The notes below the pieces were generated by a model. The model had not been told where the DNA came from, did not search any database, and saw only the letters and a program-made list of their open reading frames with translations. Below, piece by piece: positions 6,001 through 60,227 of a DNA stretch of 64,000 nt. A program made the translations under genes and the position numbers. Where the stretch lies: assembly GCF_016545825.1 (NCBI RefSeq), contig NC_052616.1, forward strand, positions 34,462,192 through 34,526,191. The letters are read 5' to 3'. The stretch's first letter is position 1; each line of letters begins with the position of its first letter. This DNA is from Eucalyptus grandis (taxonomy: Eukaryota; Streptophyta; Magnoliopsida; Myrtales; Myrtaceae).

Positions 6001-9000
6001 AGTTTGATCAATTTTAAACTCTCGTTCTTAGTGCCACTTGACTATATGTAACTAACAAGAAATATTAAATCATTGACAAGATAGTTGATAAGCTTGAGCC
6101 TTGATAGAAAAGGTCAAATAAAAATCAGTATTCAATAAAATAGGTCTTTTTCATTATTATTGGAGATATAACAAGTACGCAATTAACACAAAAATAAATA
6201 AACTTCGGAAACTATATAACAAGTAGGTAATTAACAAAACAAACGGATTTCGGAAACTAACTCAAATAAAAATTGGTAATGCAAAATTAGCCTGTTATCG
6301 AATCGGTGAAAAATTGATAATCACTTTAATTGGGAAAGTCCTAAAACTTATTAAATTGATAAAAAATGATCTCAATTAATTGAAGAATGAAGCCCTTTTT
6401 AGGATTTTTTTTTTTAAAAAAAAATTGAATGAGGCAGCAACAGCTCATCCACAACTATTGTTTTGTAAAAAAATGTTAGATGCTTTCAAAGCAGGACCGT
6501 GTCATCAACCACCAAACTAATCCTTCAATATCACATGAACTTTGACTTTCCTCTAAAGAAAATATAATGATGAAGTAGACAGTTGAACAAATTTTTATGT
6601 GATGTTTAGGGAGCACCTAACAATCCGACTGCTTGTACATGTATTTCCCTATTGCAATTATTCCAGTGCTTCAATATGGCCTCGGAGTTTGATCAATTTT
6701 AAACTCTCGTTCTTAGTGCCACTTGACTATATGTAACTAACAAGAAATATTAAATCATTGACAAGATAGTTGATAAGCTTGAGCCGTTAAAGAAAAAGTC
6801 AAAAAAAATTAGTAAACTATAAAATAGGTCTTTTTTATTATTATTGGAGATATAACAAGTAGGAAATTAACAAAACAAATGAACTTCGAAACAATATAAA
6901 CTAACAAAACATATAATAAAGAACAGAAAATGTAACCGATCGTTGAAAAATTGATAATCACTTTAATTAGGATTGACAACTTCTAACATGAATAAGTTCA
7001 CCAAAAGTCCTAGAGTTTGTTTGCAATGGTGTCCTGAAATGATAGTGCAGCTAAAAATCAAATTGCTCATCTCACAACTGATTGTTTTTGTAAAAACATG
7101 TTAGATGCTTTCACAGCACCGTGTCATCAACCACCAAACTAATCTTTCAATATCACATGAACTTTGACTTTCCTCTAAAGAAAAATATTATGATGAAGTA
7201 GACAAGTTGAATAAATTATTATGTGATGTTTAGGGAGCACCTAACAATCCAACTGTTTCATACATTTATTTCCCTGTTGCAATTATTCCAGTGCTTCAAT
7301 ATGGCCTAGGAGTTCGATCAATTTTAAACTCTCGTTCTTAGTGCCACTTGACTATATGGAACTAACAAGAAATATTAAATCATTGACAAGATGGTTGATA
7401 AGCTTGAGCCTTTAAAGAAAAAGTCAATAAAAATTAGTAAACATAAAATAGGTCTTTTTTTTTTATTATTGGAGATATAACAAGTAGGAAATTAACAAAA
7501 CAAATGAACTTCGGAAACTATATAACAAGTAGGTAATTAACTAAACAGGTGGATTTCGGAAACTAACTCAAATAAAAGTGGGTAATGCAAAACTAGCCTG
7601 TTAACCAATCGGTGAAAAATTGATAATCTCTTTAATTGGGATTAATAACTTCTAAAATGAATAAGTGCACCAAAAGTTCTAGAGTTTGTCATGAAAATGT
7701 AATGGTGTCCTGAAAATTTTGGATAGTATAATTAAGTCCTAAAACTTATTAAATTGATAAAATCAATGATCTCTATTAATTCTAAAGAACAGAAAATGTT
7801 GGTGTAGCCTTTTTTTTTTTTAATTGAATGTGGCAGCAATAGCTCATCCACAACTTATTGTTTTTGTGAAAAAATGTTAGATTCATTCAAAGCACCGTGT
7901 CATCAACCCCCAAACTAATCTTTCAATATCACATGAACTTTGACTTTCCTCTAAAGAAAAATATTATGATGAAGTAGACAGGTTGAATAAATTTTTATCT
8001 GATGTTTAGGGAGCACCTAACAATCCGACTGCTTGTACATGTATTTCCCTATTGTAATTATTCCAGTGCTTCAATATGGCCTAGGAGTTTGATGAATTTT
8101 AAATTCTCGTTCTTAGTGCCACTTGACTATATGTAACTAACAAGAAATATTAAATCATTGACAAGATAGTTGATAAGCTTGAGCCGTTAAAGAAAAAGTC
8201 AAATAAAAATTAGTAACCAATAAAATAGGTCTTTTTTATTATTATTGGAGATATAACAAGAAGGAAATTAACAAAAAAAAATGAACTTCGGAAACTATAT
8301 AACAAGTAGGTAATTAACAAAACAAATGGATTTGGAAACTAACTCAAATAAAAGTGGGTAATGCAAAAACTAGCCTGTTAACCAATCGTTGAAAAATTGA
8401 TCATCACTTTACTTGGATTGATAACTTCTAAAATGAATAAGTGCACCAAAAGTCCTAGAGTTTGTCAAGAAAATGTAATGGTGTCCTGAAAATTTTGGAT
8501 ATTGTAATTAAGTCCTAAAATTATTAAATTGATAAAATCAATGAACTCTATTAATTTTGAAGAACATAAAATGTTGGTGTAGGCTTTTTTTTTTTATATA
8601 AATTGAATGAGGCAGCAATAGCTCATCCACAAATGATTGTTTTTGTAAAAAAAATGTTAGATGATTTCAAAGCACCGTTTCATCAACCCCTAAACTAATC
8701 TTTCAATATCAAATGAACTTTTGACTTTCCTCTAAAGGCAAATATAATGATGAAGTAGACAAGTTGAATAAAATGTTGGTGTAGCCTCTTTTTTTTTTTT
8801 TTTAAATTGAATGAGGCAGCAACAGCTCATCCACAACTAATTGTTTTTGTAAAAAAATGTTAGATGCTTTCAAAGCACCATGTCATCAACCATCAAACTA
8901 ATTTTTCAATAGCACATGAACTTTTGACTTTCCCCTAAATTAAAAACATATGATGAAGTAAAATTAGCAGCCTGTGATGTTTAGAGAGCACCTAACATTC

Positions 9001-18135: not shown

Positions 18136-18204
18136 TATAGTGAGTAGTAGAAGTCCATTATGTGGTGTTTTAGCATGTGGTGGTCTCGGCACCATGTGTC
18201 ATCA

Positions 18205-19147
18205 TTGATAAATGATAGAAATTCTATTTCTTTGTCTTCTCTGAAGTGTAGTAGCGTGGAAGTATTTTGAGTTCCTATCTCCCCACCTCATCCAGTTGAT
18301 GCGTGATCTCATACCCCAATACATTTCCTCCCTACGCCAAAGCCTCTCTATTTTCTCTTTTATCTCTCGACATGCCATTTGGCTTGAACTTTCGGAGTCC
18401 CCATTTGTAAGAGCAATAAGTTGTGTTTTGAGATCTCTAATTTGGACAGCTGCATTAGAGAACTTTGAGTTGCTCCATCTTGTCAATTCCATGGTCACCT
18501 TCTGTAATTTCTGAGACAAATTGGTCTGCTGGTGCCTATCATCTCCCCAGCAGCTTTTTATAATTTCCCCACACTCTTCCTCCTCCATCCAGTAGGCTTC
18601 AAACTTGAATTCTTTTCTCCTTCTTTCTCTAGCAGGATGTAGGGATAATACTAATGGGCTATGATCTGAACCAACTGCTGGGAGGGCCACCACTTCAGCA
18701 TTAGGGAAAGAAGCTATCCATTCCATTGTACATAGGACTCTATCCAACCTCTTTTTCACTAAATTTTCCCCGATTCGGTTGTTTGCCCAAGTATATGCAC
18801 AGCCTTTTGTATCAATATCCATTAAGGAACAATCATTTATCATTTCCCGGAAAGCAGCAATCCGGTGTTGGTCAGCTTCCCTCTTCCCTACCTTCTCCCA
18901 GGTGTATAGGACTTCATTAAAGTCCCCCATACAAAGCCACGGAATTTGATTAATAGGGTGTAATTCCCGAATCTGTTGCCATAAATTTAGCCTCTCCGTG
19001 AAGGTGGTAGATGCATGTACGAATGTGATTCTCATCCTATGGCCACTAGAGGGATCCCTGCATTCTACATCCATATACTCCTTTGAACTAGAGTTTATTG
19101 TAACATCCGCCTCATCATTCCACATCAGCACCAGTCCTCCTAACCTG
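18205..19147 (-). pseudogene. LINE ORF2 endonuclease fragment inserted in LRR sequence
   Basis: An open minus-strand stretch of ~315 codons encodes the N-terminal apurinic-endonuclease-like domain of a plant L1-type LINE: LGGLVLMWNDEADV, FVHASTTFTERLNLW, PWLCMGDFNEVLYTWEKVG, CAYTWANNRIGENLVKKRLD, GSDHSPLVLSL, then the linker WGDRNSKYFHATTLQRRQRN. The GDFN, the tWaNn and the SDHsPl motifs hold the catalytic Asp/Asn/His residues. The reverse transcriptase and ORF1 are absent. The upstream junction (~19,147) falls exactly in LRR sequence (AINYR from ATCAATTACAGGT) and shares a few bases with it, suggesting a template switch or a repair event rather than normal target-primed insertion. The apparent start methionine and first residues are LRR-derived. 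Confidence 0.85.
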
Positions 19148-19249
19148 TAATTGATGGCAAGAATGGAGAACAAACGATGACGTTTACTAATGGATGTAGG
19201 AAGGCTTGTAATTTTGTAGAGATTTGCATTCTACATCCATATACTCCTA

Positions 19250-20052
19250 TGAACTGAAGTTAAATCTCCATAATTTTGTAGAGATTTGCAATTATCCATT
19301 CGAAGACCTCTCAAAAATGGCGGCAGCTTGGGAATCACCTGTAATTGATGGCAATTTATAGCTCGAATATAGGACAAACGATGACGTTTACTGATGGATG
19401 TAGGAAGGCTTGTAATTTTGTTCCCTGACAAATTTAATTCTGTCAAGAATGGAGAACATGAAAGATTCTCAAGAAAGTCTACTTCGGACAAATAACATCC
19501 CCAAAGGTCTAATTGCTGTAAACTTGAAAGTTTGGTCTTCATGCATGGATCGACTAAATCCTCATACTTTGGAAACTCGACTAAATTTGTGCAAGAACTA
19601 ATATGCAAGTTTTCAAGGTTTTGTAACTTATAAATGCTAGATGGCAGATGTTCCAGATCCTTGCAATCATGTATATGCATTTCCTCCAAAGAGACAAGAT
19701 TTTCTATTGATGTAGGAAGTTCTTTAATAGCGGTCCCTCCTAACCTAAGCTGTTTTAGGCCTTTGAGTTCATGTGAAATATTAGGGAAGCTTTCAAATCT
19801 TGTGCAATCTTCAAGATTGAGATATTGGAGATTTTTTGACTTGAGCTCATTTGGAAAAACACTAAGTTCAGAGCACCCCCGAAAATCCAACACTTGTAGC
19901 TTTTCATGATATGCAATAGACTCGTGAGCTTCCACCAAGTTTTTGCAATTCTGGAGATACAATTCCTCAAGATTTGGAGTACACGAGAGATCAAGCATGC
20001 AAACCAGCCACTGACATTGACTGAAATTAATGTACTTCAAATTTTGGAAGTC
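19250..20052 (-). pseudogene. TNL exon 4: leucine-rich repeats, 3' truncated
   Basis: The acceptor TTTTTGCAG precedes 20052 and the exon begins DFQNLKYINFS. About nine LRRs follow, including LSCTPNLEELYLQNCKNL, LKGLKQLRLGGTAIKELP, LVSLEEMHIHDCKDL and LTELNLSGNKITSLPTSI, ending IPKLPPFLRGLRMDNCKSLQ and then NYGDLTSVHR. Just after this (near 19,250) the sequence switches to a short LINE-derived piece that repeats part of the endonuclease fragment at 19.06 kb and brings in a stop codon. The missing continuation of the exon is found ~1.5 kb further on, in the duplicated copy at 17.69-18.14 kb. Confidence 0.88.
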
Positions 20053-20100
20053 CTGCAAAAATAGCAAAATCGAGTTTGTTAAACATTTTGAAAGCAACAC

Positions 20101-22534
20101 AAAAGGGTTGCTTGTATGATGACGTCGCTTCCTTACATTTAAACCATGGAATTCCTATTATGATAATAGTTTGCTAATAAAGCATGTCTCGTATGTATCT
20201 TTCAAGATTATATTTTAGGTCACCAATTGTAAATATTGAGTAATTTGTATATTTCATGTAGAGGAGATCTGCCATGGAATCCACAAATAGGCCCTATGCT
20301 AGTTGTTGTACATAGATAGGGGAGTCAAACTCGTGAAATGATGGTAATTTAATATCAGATGGCATTCACATTGTCCATGGCTTTATAATTTATGATAATA
20401 TCATACTTTATTTGCAGGGGTTTAGTTAATTTGAGGTTATAAAATTGGCTACACAACACATCGGGGAGATTGGGTTTGTTAGGTGACTATGTCATTATTA
20501 CATATGCTAAGACCACAACACTCTTCACGTGGATGGAAGCAAGGAGTTTAGGTAGACTAGGCAAATTGGAACTTACTATCCAGGTTTCCGAGTGAAATTC
20601 TTAGCCTATTAATTAACTTTTCATTTTCTTGTTGTAATTACATATTGTATTGAGAAATGAGTCACCACTTTCAAACTACTAGAAATATATTTGGCAAAGC
20701 TTGCCCGAAGTGGTGTCAAATGGCACACGCACGACCAAGCTTTACATAGCAATTTAGTTTCCATCATCACTTTAGCAAAATAGAGATAACTCTTATCGTT
20801 TTACATTTTATATGTTATTTGAAAGAATTGAATGATATATAGGTACACGATATGAAAAAAAATTCACAAATAAAATTGTGTAATTATTTAAAAAATTAGA
20901 ATTATTACCATTGAAAATCCCAAGTCAATATGTAGATTTACTCCAAATTACTTTTCATTTACAAAAATCCTAAACTAGTACCAATATGACATAGTTACCA
21001 TAAACTAATTTTCCTCTATTAAAAAATCCTCAAACTAGTATTCTTGACCCAAATCTACCCTGCATTAGTAGAAGAAACTTAGTTTGGAATCAAATTATGG
21101 CGTGTGTCATGTGTCGTGTGTCATGCATGTGGTAATCACAAAACTCAAGTACATTGTAATGTAGTGAACGTGCCCAATGTAACACACATGACAAAACTAT
21201 GCCATGTGTCATGCCATGTGACAATTATAGAAGCATGATGAAGTACCACATGTCAAGTGTGGATGCAGGCCCCATGACAAAACAATTAATGTGTCATGCC
21301 ATGTGGTAATCACATAAACAAAGTGAAGTGCTAGGGGATGAGCATAAGAATGAAGACTATTTGTTTTGACTTTAACTATATATATTATAAATGAATGTAG
21401 GATGTAAATATTATCACAATGTAATTACGTAAAAATTAGCGAATTTTGGAATTCTTTGAAATCATGCAAAGGCAATGAAGCCAACTTTGAAAAACATTCA
21501 GAAGAAGATAAATATTTCTTATACTCAATCCAAGATCCGACTCTGACTTTCTATTAAGAAATTAGTGGTAACCCCTACTAGATTGCCTAAATTGATTTAG
21601 GTGTGCACACATTATGGGAAACTTCCCTAATAAATACTCTATTGTGTCTACTTAGAAGTTCTGCTCCTTAAGAAATGACTAAAGCAACTAACAATGCCTT
21701 GTTTTATAGATTGATCTAATTTTATTGATGCTGGACAAATCCCCATAATTTAGGTACGCGTATTAGGTAAGGCTCCATCACTTGATGACAATGTGGCCTA
21801 CCACTCAGCCAACTACTCCTTGGGTGTTTTTAATTCTATATACACGTCGAAAAGTAGGTTGGTCATACTTTTGTTTCCCATTTATTCGACCGCTATACAC
21901 TTTTTCTGTAAAATAAAAAAGTTTATATGTAAAAAAATTGACAACAAATTTCATTTTGAATTTCTTCACTAGGTAGATTTGACTTGATTTTGAAATTTGT
22001 TTATGTCAATAGTTAGAGATATTAGGTTTAGAAAGTATGTAAACTTTATCTATACTATTATACAAGGCAAGATGATCTCCTACTTTAAATGATTTCAATC
22101 TTTTTTTCTTTTATATTCCTTCCATCGATTATCCTCAATAAATTATTTTATAGTTATAATACCATGGACAAATACGTGAAATTGATTATTTTATTTTTTA
22201 TGTCTCACATATTCATATGAGAAGTCAAACTTCTAACTATGCAAAGACCTTCATAAAAAATATATATTTAGGAAATCTTTTTGTTGTGTATTTTATTAAC
22301 AAAAATGTTTCCATTGAGTATTTTTAATAAAGTTGTTCGCTTAATTTTTGAAATGCCAATTTTGCTGCACTTAAAAACAGTTCTAACGTATGTAGTTAGT
22401 ATCATCTTGAAAGAAAATAGAGAAATGTTTTCTAATACAGGGGAATAATACTTGCTTTGGTGTACTAGTATCTATAATACACATATACGTACACAAATGA
22501 GGTAGATAAAAGGTCAATGTAGGTAAATGCTCAC
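20101..22534. other. TNL intron 3 (~2.5 kb), AT-rich
   Basis: Lies between the donor at 22534 and the acceptor at 20053. No ORF or transposon recognised. Around 21.1-21.3 kb there are several close repeats of the type tgtgtcatgccatgtg(g/a), a loose, degenerate simple repeat. Confidence 0.5.
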
Positions 22535-24004: not shown

Positions 24005-26001
24005 CTGGAGCAAAGGAAAAAGTTGTCGCACAGTTTCAGCAATTTGAATAAGCAAATAACAAGTAATTACTAACCAATAATGACAAAAATAGTGCATCAC
24101 ATTTTCACATAACCACAACCAAGATAAAAATGTATTCCCACCAAGTCAAATTAGAACTCAAACGAGCTCCACACCAATTAAAACAAGTTCAAGGTTCAAG
24201 TTTTAATCATTCCAGTGTTTCATGTTCTTTTGATTTATATATGACAATTTTACTTAATTTTCTTGTCAAACTGTTATATATGATTTATTTATATGCTAAG
24301 TTAAAAAAAAAATTATTCAAGACTTCAAACGATGGTTGAGAGTTTGATTCGAAAATTATTAAAAAATGTCGAAGCACGATGTCGTTGCCTTACATGGCAT
24401 GTACACACTAATTATTCTGTATCAATCATTGCAAACTTTCTCATTCCTTCCAATGGGATGAGATAAGTGCGGTAACACATACATAAGGTCTTGTCCATTG
24501 ATTAATCAAGTTTTAGCATTTTATATTGTTCAAATAAGTCGGTAAAACTTTTAGGCGATGAAGTCTTATTGCAAATTTTTTTTTCCGGGAAAAAGCCATG
24601 TGTCTATTCTATGGTTAGCTACATGTGATTTTTCGAACTCAAAATGCTGCCAAAAACGAGTTTATGACTCGGTTGACCAAAATTGGAAATCTGTGGAATT
24701 CTATTTACTAAAATGAAACGTGAAGACCTAATTAGCCTGCAGATAAGATGTCTACCACTTTTATTACACGTTGAGGGGGAGAACAAGGATCCATAGAAAA
24801 GACTTGGAGACCTTACATGGATGAATCATGGCTTAACAAAAGCCAAAGGTAGAATTCTATTATTTGATGCCCTAAAATAGTTTTTTTTTTGTGCTGATAA
24901 ATTTTAATAAATATTGGTAAGTGTCAAAAAAATGTCAAGAAAAAAAGATCAATGATTTTTCCTTTCACATAACTTTTTAGTAACTTACAACAGTTTTATT
25001 AAACCGCCAACTTTTTTATTATAATGCTACTTACCAATTTTCTATTAACTTACCAAATTAGATTTGCATAACTTATGGCATCAAATTTACTAACTTTCAT
25101 ATGGAATCACCAACATAAATTAGAGTAACTTAGCAACATTTGTCGTGTTAAATAATCATCTACTAAGTTTGGGTTACCAACTCTCACTTGAGTGACTTAT
25201 TCTTCTAATTTACTAACTATTGAATTACCAACTATGATTTGAGTTACTTGCCAACTACTTTAAAAAAGGGATAAGTGCATTAGAAGTCCTAAAACTTATC
25301 ATGAAAATGCAATTGAGTCCTAAAACTTTCAAAAGTGAAATTAAGTCATAAAACTTATCACAAAAGTTCAATCAAGTCCTAAAATTTTTAAAATGTTCAA
25401 TAAAGTCCTAAAACTTATCTGGAAAGTGCAACTGAGTCCTAAAACTTTCAAAAAGTGCAATCAATGAAAGGACTTAGATTGAACCATTTTAATAAGTTTT
25501 AGAAATTGATTGCATTTTTTGAAAGTTTTAGGATTGAATTGCACTTTGTGACAAGTTTTAGAACTTAATTGCACTTTTTGAAAGTTTTCAAACTTAATTG
25601 CATTTTCATGACAAATTTTAGAACTTCTAATGCACTTATCCCTTAAAAAAAAACTACTAATCTTTATTAGAGTGATCAATTTTTCTCTGATCAAGTAACC
25701 AACTAATTTTGGGTTATCTATTCCCATTTGAGTTATTGCCAAGCTTAAGTTTCTTGCAATTATCAACTTTTCTTCGTTTTTTCCATTTGTTTTCTCTATT
25801 TTAACTAACTCTTAGATTTACCAACTCTTATATGATATTACTAACTATAACTTAAGCCACTTAAGAATTTTCAGATATCACAAGATGAAGCATCTATAGG
25901 TATATATATATAATCATGTGAGTAGATCATTTATACACAATATCACTCATTAATAGTAAAATTTAGCTTCTTAGACAACATATGGATTCCACTCTACTTA
26001 C
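24005..26001. other. TNL intron 1 (~2 kb) holding a foldback repeat
   Basis: Between the TIR and NB-ARC exons. Contains no coding sequence I can recognise. Its main structure is the inverted repeat listed at 25,265-25,650. Confidence 0.55.
25265..25650. repeat. Foldback (inverted repeat) element in TNL intron 1
   Basis: The left arm starts aagggataagtgcattagaa and the right arm ends ttctaatgcacttatccctt, its reverse complement. Both arms (~190 bp) consist of ~36-bp subrepeats alternating cctaaaacttatca and cctaaaactttcaaaaagtg, meeting near 25,462. A transcript could fold into a long imperfect hairpin. The same subrepeat theme (gtgcaccaaaagtcctagag, then ggagtcctgaaaatttt) occurs in every unit of the array at 1-9.3 kb, so the two share an ancestral repeat. 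Confidence 0.8.
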
Positions 26002-26474
26002 CCATCTTTCAAATGCCAACCGGACAAGTTACTAGCATCAGAAAGAGCTTTCTCCCATCTCTTCAATGCCTTTGAATCCTTCCCTAACTTGGACTCATGC
26101 TCAACCATAGCTTTTTTGTACCTCTCTCTAGGTGTTCTTACTTCTCCAGGATCCACTTTATAGAACAAGGGAAAGACCGTGAGATCTCTTTCTTCCTTGC
26201 AGTCCATGATTTTTGCCACCTCTTCCAAACACCACCGTGAGGAAGCGTAATTCTTGGAGAAAATGATGATTGCAATATGCGATTCCTCGATTGCCTTCAT
26301 AAGTGTTGGCGCTATTTGCTCTCCTTTCCTAAGCTCCTTGCTATCAACATAAGTGTAGAATCCATTGTGGTCAAGAGTTGTGTAGAGATGATTGAGAAAG
26401 CTATTTCGGACGTCCTCACCTCTAAAACTCAAGAACACATGGTAAATTCTTTCAGGTTTCAATGAAGAAGCCAT
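26002..26474 (-). CDS. TNL exon 1: TIR domain
   Basis: An open exon of 158 codons starting at ATG 26474 and ending at a GTAAGT donor (G at 26001). Residues 11-23 read YHVFLSFRGEDVR, the hallmark of the plant TIR domain. YVDSKELRKGEQI follows at ~42-54, and SSRWCLEEVAKIM around 78-90 contains the position of the catalytic glutamate (residue 84 or 85) of TIR NADases. The exon ends at SGWHLKDG with phase-2 splicing, normal for TNLs. No stop or frameshift. Reading on past the donor soon hits a stop, so an unspliced transcript would give a TIR-only protein of ~158 residues. Confidence 0.92.
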
Positions 26475-28059
26475 TAGATGGTGGAGTTCAACAATTGGCT
26501 ATGAGTATTAGCTCAAAATTTGGCAAAGTATTTTCAGGTTGTTCGTTCACCGTTCAATCTTCTTGTTAATTTATACTCATACTAAAGGACAGACATGCCA
26601 TTTTTTTTTGGGTAGAACCAACAAAGAGTAATATTCGAACTTTGGAAAAAAATGGTGCTTAAGAATAGACTAAGATATATAATAGTTGTGACCACATGGA
26701 TTTATTTTCAGTGAATGTCGCATATGATGGCATTATTCGGATCGGCTTATTGACAAAAAGTTCATTCTATTTGATGTTGGAGCTATTGTAAAATTATTGA
26801 TAAACTTAACTAGTCAACAAGCCATATGGCCGGCAAAAGTAGTGAGTATAATAGAAAGCTATGGTCCTAGTGGACTCAATTATAGCACGAAGTGGCAAAC
26901 AATACTTTTACTTTTTTAAATTTCACGGCCAACGAGGGTTGCTGATGACCCTCACGGAACCTAAAGAAAGAAAGCAATATACAAAATAAAAATAAAATTT
27001 CAAAATATTCAAAATATTTAAAAATTGATCACGTTAGTGTCCGCAATGCCACGTCAAACGATTAGTGTCCACATCGGATTTTCCAACGAAGTAAATCAGA
27101 ATTAGCATTCAAGTAATCAATTTTACTTTGATGTGGCACTTAAGTAACTGAAAAAAATTTGGCACTCAAGTAAGTGTTATACGAAAGTTTAGGCATTCCT
27201 ATTATTATACGAAAGTTTAGGCACTCCTATGTTTCTTACCCCTTGAAATGGCATTTCCAATGTGTGAGTAGTTGTTTTTTTTTTTTTCCTTCCTGGTTAA
27301 ATAATATTTGAACACATGATGAATCTAAGATATATAATTACACGCGCAATTAAGTATATCAGAAAAGAATAATATTTTATTAATAATAGTAGAACTTCGG
27401 AAAATCTTAGTGCGATAGGTGTAAATACATGCACTTATTTTCACTTAAGACCACGTACCCTGGCGTTATTTGGATTGCCTTATTGAAACAAGTTTCTTTG
27501 TCTAATGTTGAATTTTTTGTTAGATTGTTCATGCACCTGAGCGGTCAACATAAGATAATCTTTTAATTAATTAGCAGCTTCGAGGGAATGACTTTCATAT
27601 GTTTAGTCTTCTTTTTTTCTTTTTTTGGTCGAAGACTTCATTTTTCTTTTCCTTAAATGGAAAATGAAGTTTTACCTTTCATTAGGTTAGCTTCAGTCAT
27701 AGGCTAACTAGTAAGGCAAATTTTGACAATTTCCTAGAAATGGCGTTCCCGGCCTTTGAGTAATTATTTCCTCTTTGCTAGTTAATAATTTAATGCATAG
27801 TCACAACTCACAAGACATATAATTATATATGCAAAATATAAGTACATCATAGCTGTGATATGATATGCCTTCAATAAGATGTGAAGGTCTATCATCTTAT
27901 TTAGTTTTATGTGCGCAGACTCTTATATGGCGAATTTGTGGGTGAAGGTCAATGTACCTCGATAATCGTGGACCAGACACCAATCAATCACTTGGACTAA
28001 TTATTTGTCATTATGAAACGAAAGGTGCTATGAATCTGTTGTGGTACCATGTGCACCGA
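26475..28059. other. TNL upstream region / intergenic
   Basis: 5' flank of the TNL locus. No gene found. Around 27.03-27.24 kb there is a run of (t/g)ggcact(c/t)aagtaa motifs and a short direct repeat of tatacgaaagtttaggca, resembling one end of the Mutator-like element at 32.5-33.5 kb. Confidence 0.45.
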
Positions 28060-30100
28060 CATCGTCGGTTTAATGGTTAAGGAATTTGGGTGTCCAACCC
28101 AATAATCTTTCTTTAATCAAAAGTTAATTTCTAATTAGCCTATTGAAGTGCGGCTATTTTATCAAAGTGCCCGTCATTCTCTCAAAAGTGTGTCATGAAC
28201 TTGAGATTGTCTTAGATGACCCATTTGCATGGTAAGAGTGTGCACCGAATAGCCTTGGCCTCAACCGTCCATGAAAAAAACTGATTGGCCACCGAAGGAG
28301 AATTTTTTAATAAAGCCTGGTCAAATTAAATTGAAATTGAAAAAATATGAGTCCATTTAAGTAATATTAGTGTGGCTGCCGTTTAAGTAATATTATTGGG
28401 TGCCTAACCCCATAATCTTTCTTTAATCAAAATTCAATTTCTAATTAGCCTATGGAAGTGCGGCCATTTTATCAAAGTGCCCACCATTTTCTTAGTAGTG
28501 TGTCATGAACTTGAGTTTGTCTAAGACAACCCATGTGCATAGTAAGTGTGCACCAAGTAGCCCTGGCCCTGAACATCCGTGAAAAGAAAAAAAAAAAAAA
28601 AAGGAACCAATTGGCCATCAAAGATGAATTTTTTGAATAAAGCTTGGTCAAATTAAATTGAAATTGGAAAAATATGAGGCCATTTAATTAATATTAGGCG
28701 GCTACCATTTAAGTAATATTATTGGGTATCCAACCCAATAATCTTTCTTTAATCAAAATTCAATTTCTAATTAGCCTATTGAAGTGTGGCTATTTTATTA
28801 AAGTGCCCACCATTTTCTCAAAAGCGTGTTATGAACTTGAGATTGTCTTAGATGACCCATGTGCATGGTAAGAGTGTGCACCAAATAGCCCTGGCCTCGA
28901 CCGTCCATGAAAAAAACTAATTGGCCACCGAAGGAGAATTTTTTGAATAAAATTGAAATTGAAAATATATGAGGCCATTTAAGTAATATTAGTGTGGCTG
29001 CCGTTTAAGTAATATTATCGGGTAAATAATATTATCGGGTGTCTAACCCAATCTTTCTTTAGTCAAAATTCAATTTCTAATTAGCCTATTGAAGTGCGGC
29101 TATTTTATCAAAGTGCCCGCCATTTTCTTAATAGTGTGTCATGAACTTGAGTTTGTCTCAAATGACCGATGTGCATAGTAAGTGTGCACCAAGTAGCCCT
29201 GGCCCTAAACATCCGTGAAAAAAAAACAATCGGCCGTCGAAGATGAATTTTTGAATAAATCCTGGTCATATTAAATTGAAATTGGAAAAATATGAGGCCA
29301 TTTAAGTAATATTAGTCTGGCAGCCGTTTAAGTAATATTATTGTGTGTCCAACCCAATAATCTTTCTTTAATCAAAATTCAATTTCTAATTAGCCTATTG
29401 AAGTCCAACTATCTTATCAAAGTGTCATGAACTTGAGATTTTCTCAAATGTGCATGGTGTGTCATGGAGAATTTTTTTAATAAAGCCTGGTCTTGAAATT
29501 GAAAAATATGAGTCCATTTAAGTAATATTAGTGTGGCTGCCATTTAAGTAATATTATTGGGTGCCTAACCTAATAATATTTCTTTAATCCCATTAGCCTA
29601 TTGCATGGCTATTTTATCAAGTGCTTGCCATTTTCTCAGTGTGTCATGGACTTGAGTTTGTCTCAGACGACCCATGTGCCTTGACCAAATGCCCTGGCCA
29701 TGATTGTCCATGAAAAAAATCGGTCCGCTATCGAAGGTGCATTTTTTGAATAAAGCCTGGTCAAATTAAATTGAAATTGAAAAAATGTGAGGCCGTTTAA
29801 GTAATATTATTGGGTGTCCAATCCAATAATATTTCTTTAATCAAAAGTCAATTTCTTATTAGCTTATTGAAGTGCGGCTATTTTATCAAAGTGCCCACTA
29901 TTTTCTCAAAAGTGTGTAATGAACTTGAATTTGTCTCAAAAGACCCATGTGCATGGTAAGTGTGCACCAAATAGCCTTGGTCCCAATTGTCCATTGAATA
30001 AACTGCTTGGCCACCGAAGGTGCATTTTTTTTAGTAAAGTCTGGTTGAATTGGATAAAAATTGAAAAAATATGAGGCCATATAAGTAATATCAGTGATGA
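28060..30100. repeat. Tandem array of seven ~310-bp units
   Basis: Units anchored on aacccaataatctttcttta begin near 28096, 28406, 28731, 29045, 29351, 29567 and 29820, so the first spacings are 306-325 bp and two later ones are shortened to ~216 and ~253 bp. Each full unit carries ttctaattagcctattgaag, then tgtgtcatgaacttgag, then ccgtccatgaaaaaaa, and ends gtttaagtaatattattggg. No conserved ORF. The last unit runs directly into the target site of hAT element B. Confidence 0.93.
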
Positions 30101-48779: not shown

Positions 48780-50905
48780 CTACCAATAATCCCCACAAGA
48801 GCATATGCCACTCCTGAAGTGATGAAAGCGGCTGGAATCTCTCACAACAATCTCACGATCAACAATCTTTGCAATCAGTTTAATTGCAGAATGACAATCC
48901 CCACAAATGCGAAGATTCTTCATTACAGTTATCGTACTACCCTCGACAGTAGTAATCAATGCAAATGCAATAGCAAGCCTTTCGCTATGGTAAAATAATG
49001 ACTCTTCCTTCTGTTCATCTTCCACGTCATGGAGAGAGAACCTCTTATCTGGAAGATAACCCAATATCTTCAACTTCATATTCAACCAATCCAGCTTCCA
49101 ATATATGTTCTCACTCAAAGAGTGGGATTTATCCCCGGAAAGAAATAAATGCTTTTGCCCCTTTATAGTAACCCAACTTCTACCTGGTTGCTTCACAATC
49201 CCTTTATCCCTCATAGTCACTCTTAATCGCGAGACATCACCCCATCTATTAGCGAAGCATAGAAGTTGGACAAGTAAAACATAAGCAAAGCACTACAATG
49301 TGGTTCTAGGCCAAGAATATAGTTTGCAGCTCTTTCTGCCAAATCTAGGTTAGAATGCATCCTACAAGAACTAAGCAAAGCAAGCCACACTATGGAGTTA
49401 GTTTTAAGGGGCATGTTTCTTACAAAATCCTCTGCTTCCTCTAGCTTCCCACATCGTCCTAGAACATCCACCATACATGAATAATGCTCGTGTTTCAATT
49501 CGATAGAAGTGTTCTCACTAAAATATCTGAACAAGCATCTCCCCTTTTGTAACATCCCAGAATGACTACACGAAGAAAGCAGTCCTGTGAGTGTGATCTC
49601 ATCTGGTTGTACCAGTCCGCGTAGCATTTGGCTAAACAACTCCATAGCCCACATCCCTCGGCCATGTTGTGCATACCTGCAAATAATGGCATTCCAGGTG
49701 ACGATGTTCTTCTCCTTGAGTCTTTTGAACACTACAACAGCATCATCAACAGCCCCACACTTACTATACATGACTACAAGAGAATTGCCAACAAATACAT
49801 CACTTCCCAATTGCAGCTTTACAGCTGAAGCATGGACCTCCTTACCTCGATCTAGAGACTCTAAACTACAACAAGAATTTAGAGCACTCACAAATGAAGA
49901 TTGATTAGGAAGAACACTTATTCTCATCATGTCATTGAACACCTTCAGGCCATCTTCATGCCTACCATTCAAGCCATAACCAGTTAGAAGAGCCGTGCAT
50001 ATGACCACATTCCTATGCACTGCTTCATAGAAGACTTGGGTTGCTTTCTCAATTCGCTTGCAGTTAGCATAGAACGTGATAAGAGAAGCACATACAAATA
50101 CACTAAGGCAGAATCCTGACTTGAGAACATGACCATGAATCTGCATGCCAAGAGGAAAAGACAATGCATTTGCACAGGCACTCAATGCACACGTCAAAGT
50201 ACTCGAATTGGGCACAACACCAGACTTGAACATTCTCTCAAATACATTTAAAGCTTCTTCACTCTTACCGTTTTGGTCAAGCCCGCCAATCATCGAAGTC
50301 CATGAGATCACATTTCGGGAAGGCATTTGCTCAAACAATTTCACAGCATTGTCCACCCTGGCATTCTCACAATACCCATGAATCATTGCATTCCATGCAG
50401 CAAGATCTCTTATGGGCATCTGCTTGAAAAATACCTCTGCCCGCTCAACCTGTCCAAATTGAAAGAACCCATTTATCATCATTGTCCATGAAACAACACT
50501 TGGTTCAGGCATTTCATCAAAAAGCTCTTCCGCCATCGTCAAGTCCACGCAGTCCAAGCAGCCTTTGATCATCGTATTCCAGCAAATTGAATCTCTCACG
50601 GGCATTTCGTAGAACAGTTTCAGGGCGTCATCAAGGCGGCCAGTTTGCAAGCGACCCACGATCATCTTCGTAAATGAACGAACATCTGGGCATTGAAATT
50701 TGTCCAAAACCTCCCGAGTTTCATCTGGGTTTTCATTCCTAAGGTGTCCAGAGACTGTAGGACCATCACAGGTCGCATGACTCCCACGTCTGAAGAAATG
50801 CTTCAAGAGATGGGTGCAGGTTTCGGATGAACTAAGCCATGAAGAAGGGAATGAACGTGTGCAAGAGCATCTGAGATTTGGGAAAACGGCGTGAAATCTC
50901 ATCAT
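48780..50905 (-). CDS. PPR protein, PLS class with E and DYW domains (one frameshift)
   Basis: An intronless gene of ~708 codons. The N-terminus (MMRFHAVFPNLRC, Arg/Ser-rich) looks like an organelle presequence, probably mitochondrial. PPR repeats of the P-L-S type run from about residue 75 to 520, for example PDVRSFTKMIVGRLQTGRLD, DSICWNTMIKGC, PSVVSWTMMINGFF and NVISWTSMIGGLDQNGKSEE. The C-terminus has a complete DYW domain with HSERLAIAF (HxE), CGDCH and the final CGDYW, the zinc-dependent cytidine-deaminase fold used in C-to-U RNA editing. It closely resembles Arabidopsis At5g46460 (PCMP-H49) as I remember it, including YANCKRI and a matching length. One base appears lost near 49,251-49,255: the first frame stops at 49223 after ASLIDGVMSRD, and the next frame continues from ANRWGDVSRLRVTMRDKG. 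Without that the gene would be intact, so either it is a very young pseudogene or the consensus has an indel. Confidence 0.88.
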
Positions 50906-50961
50906 GACGACAGGCTCCTCTACTCCTGTTGTCCCCGTGGGCAGGACACGCAGGACGTTAT

Positions 50962-52602
50962 CTGGTTTCTTCCTGCCGCAATAACGCTCCCATCCTCAAC
51001 AATTACACAGCTGTTCAATTAAAGAGTCCAATCTGAGATCATTCACTAATTAAGACTGAAATACTAATCATCTTAATTTGAAAACAAAGTAACATATATG
51101 CAATGCACCTGGTTACTGAAAACCAGTGTCTTACCCAACTGGAACTTCAAGGCTGTCCAACGCAAGCTTTGCCTTATATAAGAAAGGAAATAGATCTTGT
51201 TACATGTTAGGAGAAAAAAATATGAGAATAAGAGTCAAAATTCTCTCACGCATGCACGCATAAAGGCAAATTCAAGAGGAAATCAGCATCACGTTGCCAG
51301 CAGTAAAAATGTTTCAGGATCATTATGCAGCTACCAATGGAACAAATGCATGTCTCACCACATACTCATCCTGCAATACAGATGCAAATCCCACCTAACA
51401 GTTAAACCAATACGGCTCTAACAACAGCACAGCAAAAATGAGATAATTTGAGAAACTACATGTTGCTCAGTTCAGTGTATCTTATCATGGGTACCTCAGA
51501 GGCTTTTCTTTCGTTAATGAGGTTTCACTCAAACATTCAAGAAGCTTCCTGGCATTTTAGCTTCTGGGTCATTTTCCTTTACAAATGCTATGGCATATAA
51601 GGATGAAGAGAGATCCCTGTTGTGAAGCCCTTGCAAATAAGAATTGACAATCAGCATCTTGGGATTTTGTCTCTATTCCACTGAATAACTAATGTAAACT
51701 CTGTGTTTCTCGTGATTTTTTTCTTTTTCCATATCCACACCACAGTGCCAAAGAAAATAACCACCCAACCAATTATCCATGGGTACAACTGATGTTGACA
51801 TTATTCTCGTGCACCAAGTAAATTTGGTTTTAAATTTTCCCTGGGTGCTAAAGTCAAAAGGTGGTAAAAGGATTGCACCATCAAGCAAACACCCTTCCTG
51901 GTGGCTTGCCATCTCATTGCATATTCTTCATTCCTCTCTGGTTTTGCCTCTTCAAAAGCCTTATGAAACTTAACACAGAGTCCTATCCCAGTGATCGAAG
52001 CTTTTGACAATTAAATTGTCCTGGCAAACCTATCACCGGCTGCTCATCTTTATAATAGGCACATACTACATATCCACATTTCCTAGACAACTCAAAAGCA
52101 CCCAAATCCATCCCTCCCTCCCTCTCAACCTACAGCACCCAGATTGACTCCGTTTTTTGCCTGAAAAGGGGACTAAACCACCCCATGTACACCCAACTCC
52201 CCTTTGTTGCAATCGGCCTTGCTTGTTTTTCCTTTAAACCTAGACTTCACCTACTTATTTCAATAAATTACCACCTATGAAAAGAGAGAAAGAAAACCTA
52301 TACCTTCTAGGGATTGTTGCCAATTTTGCTGCATGTAATGTCGATTACCAACAGATGCACTACCAAGCATCCACAGACAACACTTACAAAGAAACACTTA
52401 TTCAACATCTCTTGTCCAAATTCAACTTCAAGTTCCCACGCAATTATAGCACCAAAGGAATCAGACTCAAACTTCAGCTCAAGTATTTCATTAACTTAAT
52501 ACAATTGGCTGTGCCAAGCGTTACCTGATCTATAGCAAGCTGCATAAAACCCAGAACCTCAGGAGTGAATCGTTCACCCGAAGCTATGTTATCAGTTTCC
52601 AT
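50962..52602 (-). pseudogene. TAD2-like 5' fragment (copy 2), upstream of PPR
   Basis: Exon 1 52602-52525 (METDNIASGERFTPEVLGF, then MQLAIDQ) and exon 2 51172-51135 (AKLALDSLEVPVG) are intact with the same splice sites as copy 1. Exon 3 starts at 51010 and reads CVIVEDGSVIAAGRN, but homology ends near 50,962 inside the exon. Joined in frame, the reading continues QITSCVSCPRGQQE and stops about 10 bp before the PPR start codon. The catalytic exons are absent, so no deaminase activity is expected. Introns and 5' flank match copy 1 (12.6-14.6 kb) along ~2 kb, including a shared intron ORF. The 5' flank up to ~52.9 kb is therefore likely a duplicate TAD2 promoter. Confidence 0.8.
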
Positions 52603-56331: not shown

Positions 56332-56339
56332 TTTTACCA

Positions 56340-56993
56340 AGGGAAAAATTCAATCAAGGGCCAAAGTTGGATCATTTTCTTAGAAGAGGGCTTAGAGTGG
56401 ATTATGTTTCAAAGAATAATCTGAAGTAGCCAAATCAGTCTCAAATAAGGGTTTAGGCTCACCAGAGGCCATTTTTGGCAGCTTGAACAAGGGGTAATTT
56501 GGTCAAAATAAGCTATTGGTTAAAAAATTGAAAAAAATCCCCAAATGATTTTCTATTTTTCACTTTTTCTTCCTTCGTCTCCCCTGTTGCTCTCGCCTGT
56601 TCCTCAGCCACGCCGCTCCCAGTCTTCGCTGCTGGCCTAGTCCTCAGCCGCGCCACTCGGGTCTTCGCGCCTCGCCTGATCATCGTCACTCCTCGCCCGC
56701 TCCTCACGAACTTCAGTCCGTCGTTCACTGTTCACTGTTGGCTCTTCTTTCCCAGATTCATCGTCCACAATCTTTAAGTCGTCCATGAGCTTCAAGTCTG
56801 TCATCTCCACCGCAAGCTTCACTCACTTTCAATCGAAGTCCATGTCGTTCATATCGATGCAGTCCGTTAAAGGGAAAGCTATCGTAGCTTGTTGAAACAA
56901 TGCGTCGCCTAGGCATGTTTACCAATGGCCCTGAGACCCTACTCCCAAACCCGAATGCCTCTTCAAATTACAGTCACAAAGGCTGCTCCTCTT
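56340..56993. repeat. Left terminal inverted repeat of the Pack-MULE-like element
   Basis: Pairs with 59,513-60,227 over its whole length. Includes the stretch ccaaatgattttctattttt (complement at ~60.02 kb), GC-rich ctcgcctg(a/t)tc motifs, and caatggccctgagaccct against the gcctcagtgccattg of the right arm. Open frames here are on both strands and not conserved between arms, so they are not genes. Confidence 0.82.
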
Positions 56994-57440
56994 GCGCGAG
57001 CAATTATTGTGAAATCCCAAGTTCCGATCCTCTCTTCGATGCTCCTCGGTCTATTCATGCCACTGCAATCCCAAAAGAAAGGAATTTCCATTCCCCCTAA
57101 TGCCCTTCCCCGAAAAATTGATCCAAGCTGGCGAGGAGTGTTCTCCTCCGGGGCAAAGTTGGGATTGCCTTGCACCAGCGTTGCTCTAGCAAAAGCATTT
57201 GTTCAGTCCTCTGACTTCAAACTTCAATGCCTGGCTTTTCTCGTTGTGATCTATGAACTGTTTGTTCATGCGGCAGATGTGCTCATTGGTGAATTTAACA
57301 TTAAGATTAGTGACTACTAATGTTTTGGAGCTGTGAGGACAAAAGCTTGAGTTGCGGGTTTTGGACATTGCAGAAAACGAGGTCAAAATTCTTCTTCTTT
57401 GGCGATTTGTATGGCATCCTTAAGTTAGTAATTGTCCTGT
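56994..57440. other. Unidentified interior segment, possible third captured fragment
   Basis: Lies between the left inverted repeat and the GST fragment. Plus strand is open for ~105 codons to a stop at 57320 (ending IGEFNIKISDY) and minus strand for ~70 codons, but I recognise no family on either. GT/AG-like sites nearby (acceptor ggtaatctacag before 57,501) suggest it may be genic in origin. Confidence 0.35.
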
Positions 57441-57500
57441 GTTATTATCAGTAAGCTAGGTATCAACTTCTCTGATTAATGCTTTCGTGGTAATCTACAG

Positions 57501-58119
57501 GAGGGGATGAATTCTTCACTGGGCTTCCTATATCTTCTGATGGACAAGAGACTACTCTGTTTAATGAGTTTTGCAGAGTCACTGGAAGATTTGCGGCTCA
57601 AGCTGTGGCATGCCATGAAATATTACATCAATATCGACTGCTTTTATAAGTGAAGGCAAAGAGCAGGAAGTTGCTCTTGCAGAGGGAAGTGAGCACCTGC
57701 AGAAGCTGGAGGAAGAGCTTTGAGGGAAGAAATTCTTAACTGAAGGCAAGGAGCTAGAAGTTGCTCTTGCAGAGGGAAGTGAGCACTGAAGGAAGAGCTT
57801 TGACGGAAGAAATTCTTAAGTGAAGGAAAATAGCAGGAAGTTGCTCTTGCAGAGGAAAGTGAGCACCTGCATAAGCTGGAGGAAGAGCTTTGAGGGAAGA
57901 ACTTTTCAGCGGAGACACCATTGAATATCTGGACACCACAATTGGATTGTTGGACAGCTACTTAGAGTCTTTGAGGAGATTTTCAATATCAAAGTGGTTG
58001 AAGGTGAGAGGTTTCCATTTCTATTTGCATGGATGAAGGAGTTCTCAGATGCTCCAGGAATCAAAGATTGTTGGCCACCCCATGACAAGCTCATCCCCGA
58101 CTGCGTTGCTCTTCGTTGA
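57501..58119 (+). pseudogene. Captured tau-class glutathione S-transferase fragment
   Basis: Follows an acceptor-like TAATCTACAG. The recognisable part gives the C-terminal helical half of a plant GSTU: TAFISEGKEQEVALAEGSEH, LQKLEEEL, GDTIEYLDTTIGLLDSYLES and, after a frame change, FNIKVVEGERFPFLFAWMKE with FSDAPGIKDCWPPHDKLIP, ending DCVALR and a stop. Complete GSTUs conjugate glutathione to electrophiles. The N-terminal glutathione-binding thioredoxin fold is missing here. The EGKEQE...EEEL block is present three times in tandem (57.65-57.90 kb), and stops and frameshifts occur. The segment just upstream (GLPISSDGQETTLFNEFC) is unassigned. Nonfunctional as a GST. Confidence 0.75.
57648..57905 (+). 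repeat. Three tandem ~80-90-bp copies within the GST fragment
   Basis: Units begin near 57648, 57738 and 57817 and share aggaagttgctcttgcagag and gaggaagagctttga. The middle unit lacks ~14 bp. Each encodes the same GST helix segment, so the triplication arose after or during capture. Confidence 0.85.
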
Positions 58120-59110
58120 GTGTTTCACACGAAATTGTCATGGACTTGACCTATATATACATATTTTTTTTGTCGAAGGGTGTCAAGACTTATGTGACTG
58201 TCAGTTTTCATCTTCATATTCCAAAATAAATGATATGTTGCGCTTATTACTGATCTTTTGAACCAGTTTTACCTTCAACTACGAAATAGTTTGCTATCAC
58301 AGATGTTATGTTTCCATATGCAAAATAGTTTTCCCTTCGGTGCATGCTAGATACAAAATTGGTTTGAATTGAGTGAACGATGGAATTTTTGCTGGTTTAG
58401 GACAGGAAACAATCGAACAGCTCAAACTAAAATTTACAAAGTTGCTGGCACATGTCTACTGGTTAGTTGTTCATCCTGGGCTATGTCATTAATATACAGC
58501 ATAGTGTATTGACCAATGAGTGTAGATTGGCATCCCATTGAGCTTTCAAAGAAGTGACGACAATTGCTTGAAAATTGAATAATGCCACTAAAGCATATTA
58601 TGGAACTTCATTTAGTAATTAGCAGATCGAATATGATAAACTTGCCACATAATTCTACTTGCTCCGAATAAGCAAGAAAACCAAGAGAAAACAAAAGTTA
58701 ACAACCACGTGAATATTGTAGAGTTAACAGACATCAATGAACATCAATGAAAGATTTTATTTGGGAAATTAGAACATGTACCACTCAACCATTCCATCAC
58801 CTTGCCATTTTGATAAATCAATACAAAGCATGTTGTGAATGCTACACAACCATAACTAAAGAGAGAATTAGGGACAAGAATGACAAGCCTTCATGCAGAA
58901 AGTTAAGTCTGCACACAAATTTTCAAAACAAACATGCTGAAAGAAGATGATTTCTCAATTTGTAAAATTGTGCTTTACAACTTATAAATAGTCCAATCTG
59001 TAAATGGAGGGCTCAGAGAGTTTCATCTAACAAATAGATGCATTAACATTGTTAAATCCAATCAAAGTAGCTGCAATGAGGCCTCCAACAGACAACATGA
59101 ACTGAATCTA
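58120..59110. other. Interior of the Pack-MULE-like element, unassigned
   Basis: AT-rich, no recognisable coding sequence. Parts may be 3' UTR or intron of the captured genes. Confidence 0.4.
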
Positions 59111-59149
59111 GGATGCTGCACTCTTTCCTGAGACCTTAAGATGCAGAAC

Positions 59150-59506
59150 TCACTTCACAAATGGAACCCTCAAAGGACAGTTTGCTCATATTCCTCATCC
59201 TATTGCTCGAAGAATTGTCTTGGCAAAAACTCTTCATAAGGTGACCGTGTTGCAATAAGTGACAAACTTGTGTTGTGAACGCTAACATGAACACGGGATT
59301 GCACAGTATTATTTGAGTCCCAATAGCTTGTGATGATCCTCATGATAAATTTTGATCAAATGTGTGAACGCCCTCCCAGCAGTTCTAATCGCCAACCTCC
59401 TAATGATTCCCCCAAGTACAATCATGGCAAAGCCCAGATTGCTGATCCACCAGCATTCTTCGAAAGCTGGAAAATTACTCCACCGAAGAAAACAACATTG
59501 CAACAA
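59150..59506 (-). pseudogene. Captured isoprenylcysteine carboxyl methyltransferase fragment
   Basis: The minus strand reads FEECWWISNLGFAMIVLGGI, then IRRLAIRTAGRAFTHLIKIY and HEDHHKL, the conserved membrane and catalytic core of plant ICMT (STE14 family), which methylates the C-terminal prenylcysteine of CaaX proteins in the ER. About 20 residues normally following HHKL (the GVYxxxRHPGY region, needed for S-adenosylmethionine binding) are deleted. The reading resumes in another frame with LGTQIILCNPV and then RSPYEEFLPRQFF, ending with degenerate YEQTVL and stops. The N-terminal membrane segments are missing. It abuts the right inverted repeat directly and faces the GST fragment. Nonfunctional as an enzyme. 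Confidence 0.8.
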
Positions 59507-59512
59507 GATAAT

Positions 59513-60227
59513 TCAGAGGAGCAGGTTTTTTTACTGTGATTGGAACAGACATTCGGGTTTGGGAAGAGAGCCTCAGTGCCATTGTTGTGATGTTCCATGA
59601 CATGCCCATACCTAGGTGACGTGTTGTTTCAACAAGCTACGATAGCTTTCCCTTTAACGGACTGCACCGATATGAACGACATTGACCTCGATCGAAAGTG
59701 AGTGAAGCTTGCAGACGAGACAACAGACTTGAAGCTCATGGACGACTTAAAGATTGTGGACGATGAATCTGGGAAAGAAGAGCTGATGGTGAACGGTGAA
59801 TGGCAAATGGTGGACTAAAGCTCGTGATGAGCGGGCGACAAGTGACGAGGATCAGGCGAGCGGCTAAGACCTGAGCGGCGTGGCTGAGGACCAGGCAAGT
59901 GGCGAAGACAGGAAGCGGCACGACCAAGGATCAGGCGAGCAGCGAAGACCGAGAGTGGCGCGGTCAAGGATCAAGCGAGAGCAACAAGGGAGAGGAAGAA
60001 AACGTGAAAAATAGAAAATCATTTGGGGATTTTCTTCAATTTTTTATCCAATGGCAGATTTTGACGAAAATTACCCTATTCATGTCATCGGAAATGGCCC
60101 TCCGGTGAGCCTAGACCCATATTAGAGATTGATTTGACCACTTCAGGTCATTTTTTGAAACATGATCTACTCTAAGCTCTCTTTTGAGAAAATAACCCCA
60201 CTTCATACCCTTAATTAGAAATTTCTC
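59513..60227. repeat. Right terminal inverted repeat of the Pack-MULE-like element
   Basis: Reverse complement of the left arm at roughly 80% by eye, slightly longer through small insertions. The outer end cttaattagaaatttctc borders the target duplication ttttacca. Confidence 0.82.

What the first reader, a model, noticed from the sequence alone, without database searches (positions are those of the whole stretch)
56340..60227. Pack-MULE-like element that captured two unrelated enzyme genes in opposite orientations
Inverted repeats of ~650-700 bp, an 8-bp target duplication (ttttacca) and an interior holding a tau-GST 3' fragment (plus strand) and an ICMT core fragment (minus strand) are all visible. 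Pack-MULEs are established as gene-fragment carriers, but a two-gene convergent capture with arms this long is worth describing. If transcribed from either arm it could give chimeric or antisense RNA against the parental GSTU and ICMT genes, which is inference.
Basis: partly seen in the sequence, partly recalled or inferred. Interest (0 to 1): 0.8.

Follow-up and report, generated by a model that had tools for sequence, protein, structure and literature searches.

The report
Pack-MULE transposon carrying three gene fragments
A decayed, non-autonomous plant transposon in a myrtle-family (eucalypt-like) genome carries broken pieces of three unrelated host genes, and the start of one of them has become part of both of the transposon's long end repeats; this is a clear but ordinary kind of gene-shuffling element.

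Summary
Inverted arms (56340-56992 and 59515-60227) are 87% identical over aligned columns and are flanked by an exact 8-bp duplication, TTTTACCA. The interior holds a C-terminal tau-GST fragment (+) and an ICMT fragment (-). Pack-MULE is the best reading, with two corrections.

First, there are three captures, not two. Between the left arm and the GST piece lie codons 1-144 of a Myrtaceae pre-16S rRNA nuclease gene (YqgF/RuvX), with two introns retained.

Second, the arms are long partly because they contain captured gene: the nuclease leader and first 12-13 codons lie in both arms. In the right arm they run directly into ICMT.

An E. globulus record named as an ICMT and an E. grandis hypothetical protein have the same nuclease-ICMT junction and the same 17-nt ICMT loss. 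An unnamed contig has the left-arm/nuclease half. The composite is therefore shared, either as several copies or as one old insertion.

All three captures here carry stops and frameshifts, so a working protein is unlikely. Multi-source Pack-MULEs and acquired sequence in extended TIRs are already in print. The window's genome could not be searched, so the TIR family, parental DNA and expression are untested.

The parts
56332..56339 (.). left target-site duplication TTTTACCA
   Evidence: chance about 1e-4 to 1e-3
56340..56992 (+). left arm (long TIR): AT-rich outer part 56340-56575, GC-rich middle 56576-56934, inner end from about 56935 = 5' leader and first 12-13 codons of the captured nuclease gene
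   Evidence: arm alignment; composition; nuclease match
56935..57604 (+). captured pre-16S rRNA nuclease (YqgF/RuvX) gene fragment, codons 1-144, start codon at 56955; 5 frameshifts and 1 stop against P0044 (introns cut by script)
57222..57321 (+). nuclease intron 1 (approximate borders), retained; no GT/AG at the expected borders
   Evidence: with P0059 (reads into the start of the same intron) and P0044 (intron absent)
57382..57500 (+). nuclease intron 2, retained, GT...AG intact; absent from P0060
57605..58149 (+). captured tau-class GST fragment (C-terminal part), left border +-15 b; against P0001, stretch 57813-58146 has stops ending at 57833, 57893, 58119 and 2 frameshifts
57647..57913 (+). 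80/90-bp unit of the GST fragment in three tandem copies
58150..59118 (.). AT-rich middle (GC 34%), no protein identified; may be 3' UTR/flank of GST and ICMT (inference)
   Evidence: no Pfam match in 2 of its 3 frames of 55 aa or more
59119..59514 (-). captured ICMT fragment, joined directly to the nuclease codons of the right arm; lacks 17 nt against parent; 3 frameshifts and 3 stops against P0016
59515..60227 (-). right arm (long TIR), inner end 59515-59570 = nuclease leader and first 12-13 codons
60228..60235 (.). right target-site duplication TTTTACCA

Best explanation
It is a non-autonomous Mutator-like element of the Pack-MULE kind in a Myrtaceae genome. Shown here: ends, TSD, three captured gene fragments (the nuclease one with introns), and nuclease 5' sequence in both arms. 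Inferred: the TIR end picked up genomic DNA of the nuclease gene next to it, probably by gap repair or template switching after a break. The extended arm (TIR plus nuclease leader and start codons) was then copied to the other end, so the TIR grew inward. GST and ICMT pieces were joined in further inside. The composite was moved by a MULE transposase supplied in trans and is shared with Eucalyptus. This copy is now decayed. If promoters remain in the arms (as in other MULEs) they would point inward from both ends; any RNA here is most likely non-coding, and at most a source of small RNAs.
For: Arms and TSD. Nuclease capture: one search gave 20 proteins from 439 candidates; 18 of the 20 carry PF03652, the other two are P0059 and P0060; the five best named ones are Myrtaceae. 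The match falls in three parts with introns between. Nuclease start in the arms: parental proteins align from residue 1 at 56955 in the left arm onward; in the right arm P0041, P0042, P0044 match over 12 residues at 7e-4 to 8e-4 and P0059, with its leader (LSSQTRM), at 9e-7. Shared right-arm/ICMT junction: P0016 aligns over 166 of 166 residues to 59603-59119, P0017 over 98 of 111 to 59609-59321. Counted by hand from the letters, both encode 67 nt where the E. grandis ICMT P0018 has 84, as the window does. Shared left half: P0060 has the same frame change after intron 2 (EEGMN) and the same unspliced intron 1. No transposase domain in the 10 of 30 frames of 55 aa or more given to Pfam. [quoted passage not shown]
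Against: The outer TIR could not be searched genome-wide, so the criterion of several elements with the same TIR and different TSDs is untested. The TSD is 8 bp (9 bp with one mismatch: TTTTACCAA/TTTTACCAC); PMC3310237 gives 9-11 bp for MULEs. Pfam does not recognise the broken nuclease fragment (0 of 3 queries), and GST and ICMT score below Pfam's gathering cut-offs. Right-arm matches of the parental nucleases are short; P0045 reaches only 0.005 and P0043 and P0046 give none. The arm middle (56576-56934) has no identified origin. No record seen here contains both the left and the right half, and the outer arms of the Eucalyptus records were not seen.
Confidence: 0.88

Rival explanations
1. 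An inverted duplication at or from the nuclease locus, with ICMT and GST pieces brought in by ordinary repair, no transposon involved; the 8-bp repeat is chance.
For: Both arms contain nuclease 5' sequence. The outer TIR was not seen elsewhere.
Against: An exact 8-bp repeat sits where the inverted repeat ends. The outer 236 bp is AT-rich (GC 35%). The nuclease-ICMT junction occurs in two Eucalyptus records.
Confidence: 0.06
2. Another TIR superfamily (hAT, 8-bp TSD) or a Foldback-type element.
For: 8-bp TSD. A GC-rich 40-bp tandem repeat in the right arm, 59848-59979, a feature recalled for Foldback elements.
Against: hAT ends are short (recalled). Arms of 653 and 713 bp fit MULEs (PMC3310237 introduction: TIRs typically 100-500 bp, TSD 9-11 bp; PMC4858842 passage, accepts TSDs of 7-11 bp).
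Confidence: 0.06
3. The E. globulus and E. grandis sequences are the orthologous copy of this very insertion, so there is one old insertion and no multi-copy family. (Compatible with the best explanation except for the number of copies.)
For: P0016 and P0017 share junction and deletion with the window.
Against: Not excluded. The window's ICMT core differs from P0016 at 8 and from P0017 at 9 of 64 residues, while those two differ from each other at 4 of 64.
Confidence: 0.3

Closest known systems
Pack-MULE (rice, maize, tomato)
   Same: Long TIRs, TSD, fragments of host genes, no transposase; [quoted passage not shown] That introns are kept in Pack-MULEs is recalled.
   Different: Here three parents in a eucalypt-like dicot, two in one orientation and one in the other; relatives known only through protein records
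MULEs with acquired sequence in extended TIRs
   Same: [quoted passage not shown] Hanada not held)
   Different: Here the gene leader and start codons in the arm can be named, and the arm leads into different captures on the two sides
Pack-TIRs formed by gap filling or FoSTeST (animals)
   Same: Models for capturing foreign sequence inside a TIR element (PMC8277862 passages)
   Different: Animal elements, mostly hAT and Tc-Mariner, and fly FB4; the models are untested for this element

Membership tests
Mutator-like element (MULE) | Long terminal inverted repeats (100 bp or more) | tested here: met
   653 and 713 bp arms, 86.7% identity over 639 aligned columns
Mutator-like element (MULE) | TSD of 7-11 bp, usually 9 | tested here: met
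   8 bp exact, or 9 bp with one mismatch; range as used in PMC4858842; PMC3310237 gives 9-11
Mutator-like element (MULE) | TIR family with several elements and different TSDs, or kinship to a MULE transposase-bearing element | not testable with these tools
   own-genome search unanswered 14 times; no second copy of the outer TIR in the 64-kb window
Pack-MULE | Holds fragments of cellular genes | tested here: met
   nuclease, GST, ICMT
Pack-MULE | No transposase gene | tested here: inconclusive
   none in the 10 of 30 frames (55 aa or more) given to Pfam; the other 20 frames were not given
Pack-MULE | Capture at DNA level (introns kept) | tested here: met
   two nuclease introns retained
hAT element | Short TIRs with 8-bp TSD | tested here: not met
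   TSD length fits but arms are 653 and 713 bp; short-TIR definition recalled

The most novel reading that the evidence does not exclude
By copying a gene's leader and start codons into both arms, the element became a two-sided expression cassette: each arm brings a borrowed promoter/start facing inward, and in Eucalyptus one side yields a kept chimeric protein (nuclease start fused to ICMT core), while the other side gives spliced nuclease-GST RNA that may act on the parental genes.
Probability: 0.1. Interest if true: 0.62.

Novelty: new member of a known kind. Interest (0 to 1): 0.37.

Why it matters
It is a concrete case in which part of the sequence added to a MULE's TIR can be named (leader and start of a nuclease gene), which makes models of TIR growth and multi-template capture testable in eucalypts. 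It also warns that ACJRO7_016208 (E. globulus, a record named as an ICMT) and EUGRSUZ_D01405 (E. grandis, hypothetical) are probably transposon chimeras (inference: their outer arms were not seen).

Tried and rejected
Two-gene reading: rejected after the third fragment matched nuclease proteins. Further copies in the window: none beyond the two arms. A 310-bp tandem array at 28.1-29.4 kb resembles bases 5-45 of the right TIR (score 45; 60 shuffles average 28.8 and reach 47): not claimed. Rfam at gathering scores: 0 matches in the window. Dating by arm divergence: dropped, because P0060 fits the left-arm form and P0016/P0017 the right-arm form, so the arms already differed before these copies parted. 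Pfam on nuclease readings: 0 of 3. Literature. Eucalyptus plus Pack-MULE gives 4 papers with one Pack-MULE occurrence each, of which I saw listing and abstract start only; the 12 papers hold the other four terms and none of them 'Eucalyptus grandis'. PMC8903248 does not mention Eucalyptus in its main text. The label 'lgn' of P0044, P0059 and P0060 is unexplained; that such contigs can be transcripts is inferred from P0044, a 227-aa reading free of both introns on a 1157-base contig.

Full report
What is there. The element runs from 56340 to 60227 (3888 bases). Its arms, 56340-56992 and 59515-60227 reversed, align with 639 columns at 86.7% identity and 88 gap columns; the local score of 701 compares with at most 33 in 200 shuffles. 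Exact TTTTACCA repeats flank both ends. At this spacing an exact 8-mer pair occurs at 8 of 59,992 positions of the window, and at 200 of 200,000 random places if two bases of slack are allowed at each end.

Plant family. The protein relatives of the GST piece are Myrtaceae in 13 of 15 hits; one hit is unnamed and one is Jatropha. The three best ICMT hits of 25 are Eucalyptus. The five best named nuclease hits are Myrtaceae. The species of the window itself was not determined.

GST. The plus-strand piece at about 57605-58149 matches the C-terminal part of tau GSTs (best 72% identity to a Corymbia protein over a hand-joined 103-residue reading; PDB 1.3e-13). That this is exon 2 of a two-exon gene is recalled. 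In the stretch 57813-58146 it has stops ending at 57833, 57893 and 58119 and two frameshifts relative to P0001, and there are three tandem copies of an 80/90-bp unit. It is not a working gene.

A third gene. A reading of that stretch (with arm peptides in front) found 20 proteins, 18 of them with PF03652, among the names putative pre-16S rRNA nuclease and YqgF-like. A frameshift-aware alignment, with the two introns cut by script, covers residues 1-144 of P0044 from its first methionine, with five frameshifts and one stop. Two introns are still present in the window. The first lies between the RPLT and VLEL codons and has decayed borders; P0059 reads into the start of the same intron. The second, 57382-57500, has GT and AG. 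The capture was therefore at DNA level.

The arms hold gene sequence. The nuclease start codon is at 56955, inside the left arm, and its first 12-13 codons recur in the right arm (59552-59514, one base past the aligned arm end). Parental proteins align through the left arm from residue 1. In the right arm three of them (P0041, P0042, P0044) match at E<=1e-3, P0045 at 0.005, and P0043 and P0046 not at all. P0059, which runs upstream of the start codon, matches both arms including the leader (9e-7 right, 1e-4 left). Of all 60 proteins, 7 match the inner arms at E<=1e-3: P0016, P0017, P0041, P0042, P0044, P0059 and P0060; none of the 15 GST proteins does. How far upstream the nuclease leader extends into the GC-rich arm middle (56576-56934) could not be tested.

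Relatives elsewhere. P0016 (E. globulus ACJRO7_016208; its UniRef name, cut in the table, begins 'Protein-S-isoprenylcysteine O-m') and P0017 (E. grandis EUGRSUZ_D01405, 'hypothetical') begin with right-arm sequence and pass into ICMT at the same place as here. Counted by hand, both encode 67 nt where the E. grandis ICMT P0018 has 84, as does the window, so they share one damaged capture. P0060, from a 1092-base contig of an unexplained source, begins with left-arm sequence, passes into the nuclease piece, retains intron 1 and lacks intron 2, and shares the frame change after it. Since P0060 has the left-arm form and P0016/P0017 the right-arm form, the arm differences are older than these copies. 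I cannot say whether these are paralogous copies or, for the Eucalyptus pair, the same insertion by descent. The other 23 ICMT hits gave no arm match at E<=1e-3.

Mechanism. Shown: ends, TSD, three captures, introns, shared junctions and lesions. Inferred: capture next to a TIR by repair or template switching, copying of the extended arm to the other end, joining of GST and ICMT pieces, transposition with a transposase made elsewhere, decay. The arms still share perfect stretches of 61, 43 and 30 bases, so a read-through RNA could form a hairpin; no expression data were available.

Known or new. PMC3310237 (abstract, introduction, discussion and reference list read) says that Pack-MULEs carry gene fragments, that TIR promoters express the interior, and that acquired sequence can become part of extended TIRs. 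PMC4858842 (passages) reports multi-parent MULE-derived genes in rice relatives. [quoted passage not shown] PMC13317346 (passages) reviews capture and siRNA effects. This is therefore a new member of a known kind, with an unusually legible history. The three-gene content and the named gene start inside the arms are its best points. I found no eucalypt Pack-MULE description in the listings, but one search listed no paper with 'Eucalyptus grandis' at all and the 4 papers were not read.

Noticed in passing
18202-20154 (-): A LINE-type endonuclease frame (Exo_endo_phos, 5e-4, below the Pfam cut-off) abuts an LRR frame of a resistance-type gene; the peptide ITSLPTSISKRHRL occurs in both, as if a LINE had inserted in the gene with a long duplication.
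   Followed up: partly
25998-26498 (-): TIR domain of a TIR-type resistance gene (2.6e-44).
   Followed up: no
48780-50995 (-): PPR-DYW gene lying in two overlapping frames, so either a frameshift or an assembly slip.
   Followed up: no
2245-8341: A pair of 45-bp units occurs seven times, mostly about 780 bases apart, suggesting a long tandem array.
   Followed up: no
28126-29392: 310-bp tandem array whose unit weakly resembles bases 5-45 of the right TIR; not above shuffles.
   Followed up: partly
E. globulus ACJRO7_016208 and E. grandis EUGRSUZ_D01405 (protein records P0016, P0017): Records that start with transposon-arm/nuclease sequence and run into a damaged ICMT; probably chimeras inside Pack-MULE copies.
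   Followed up: partly
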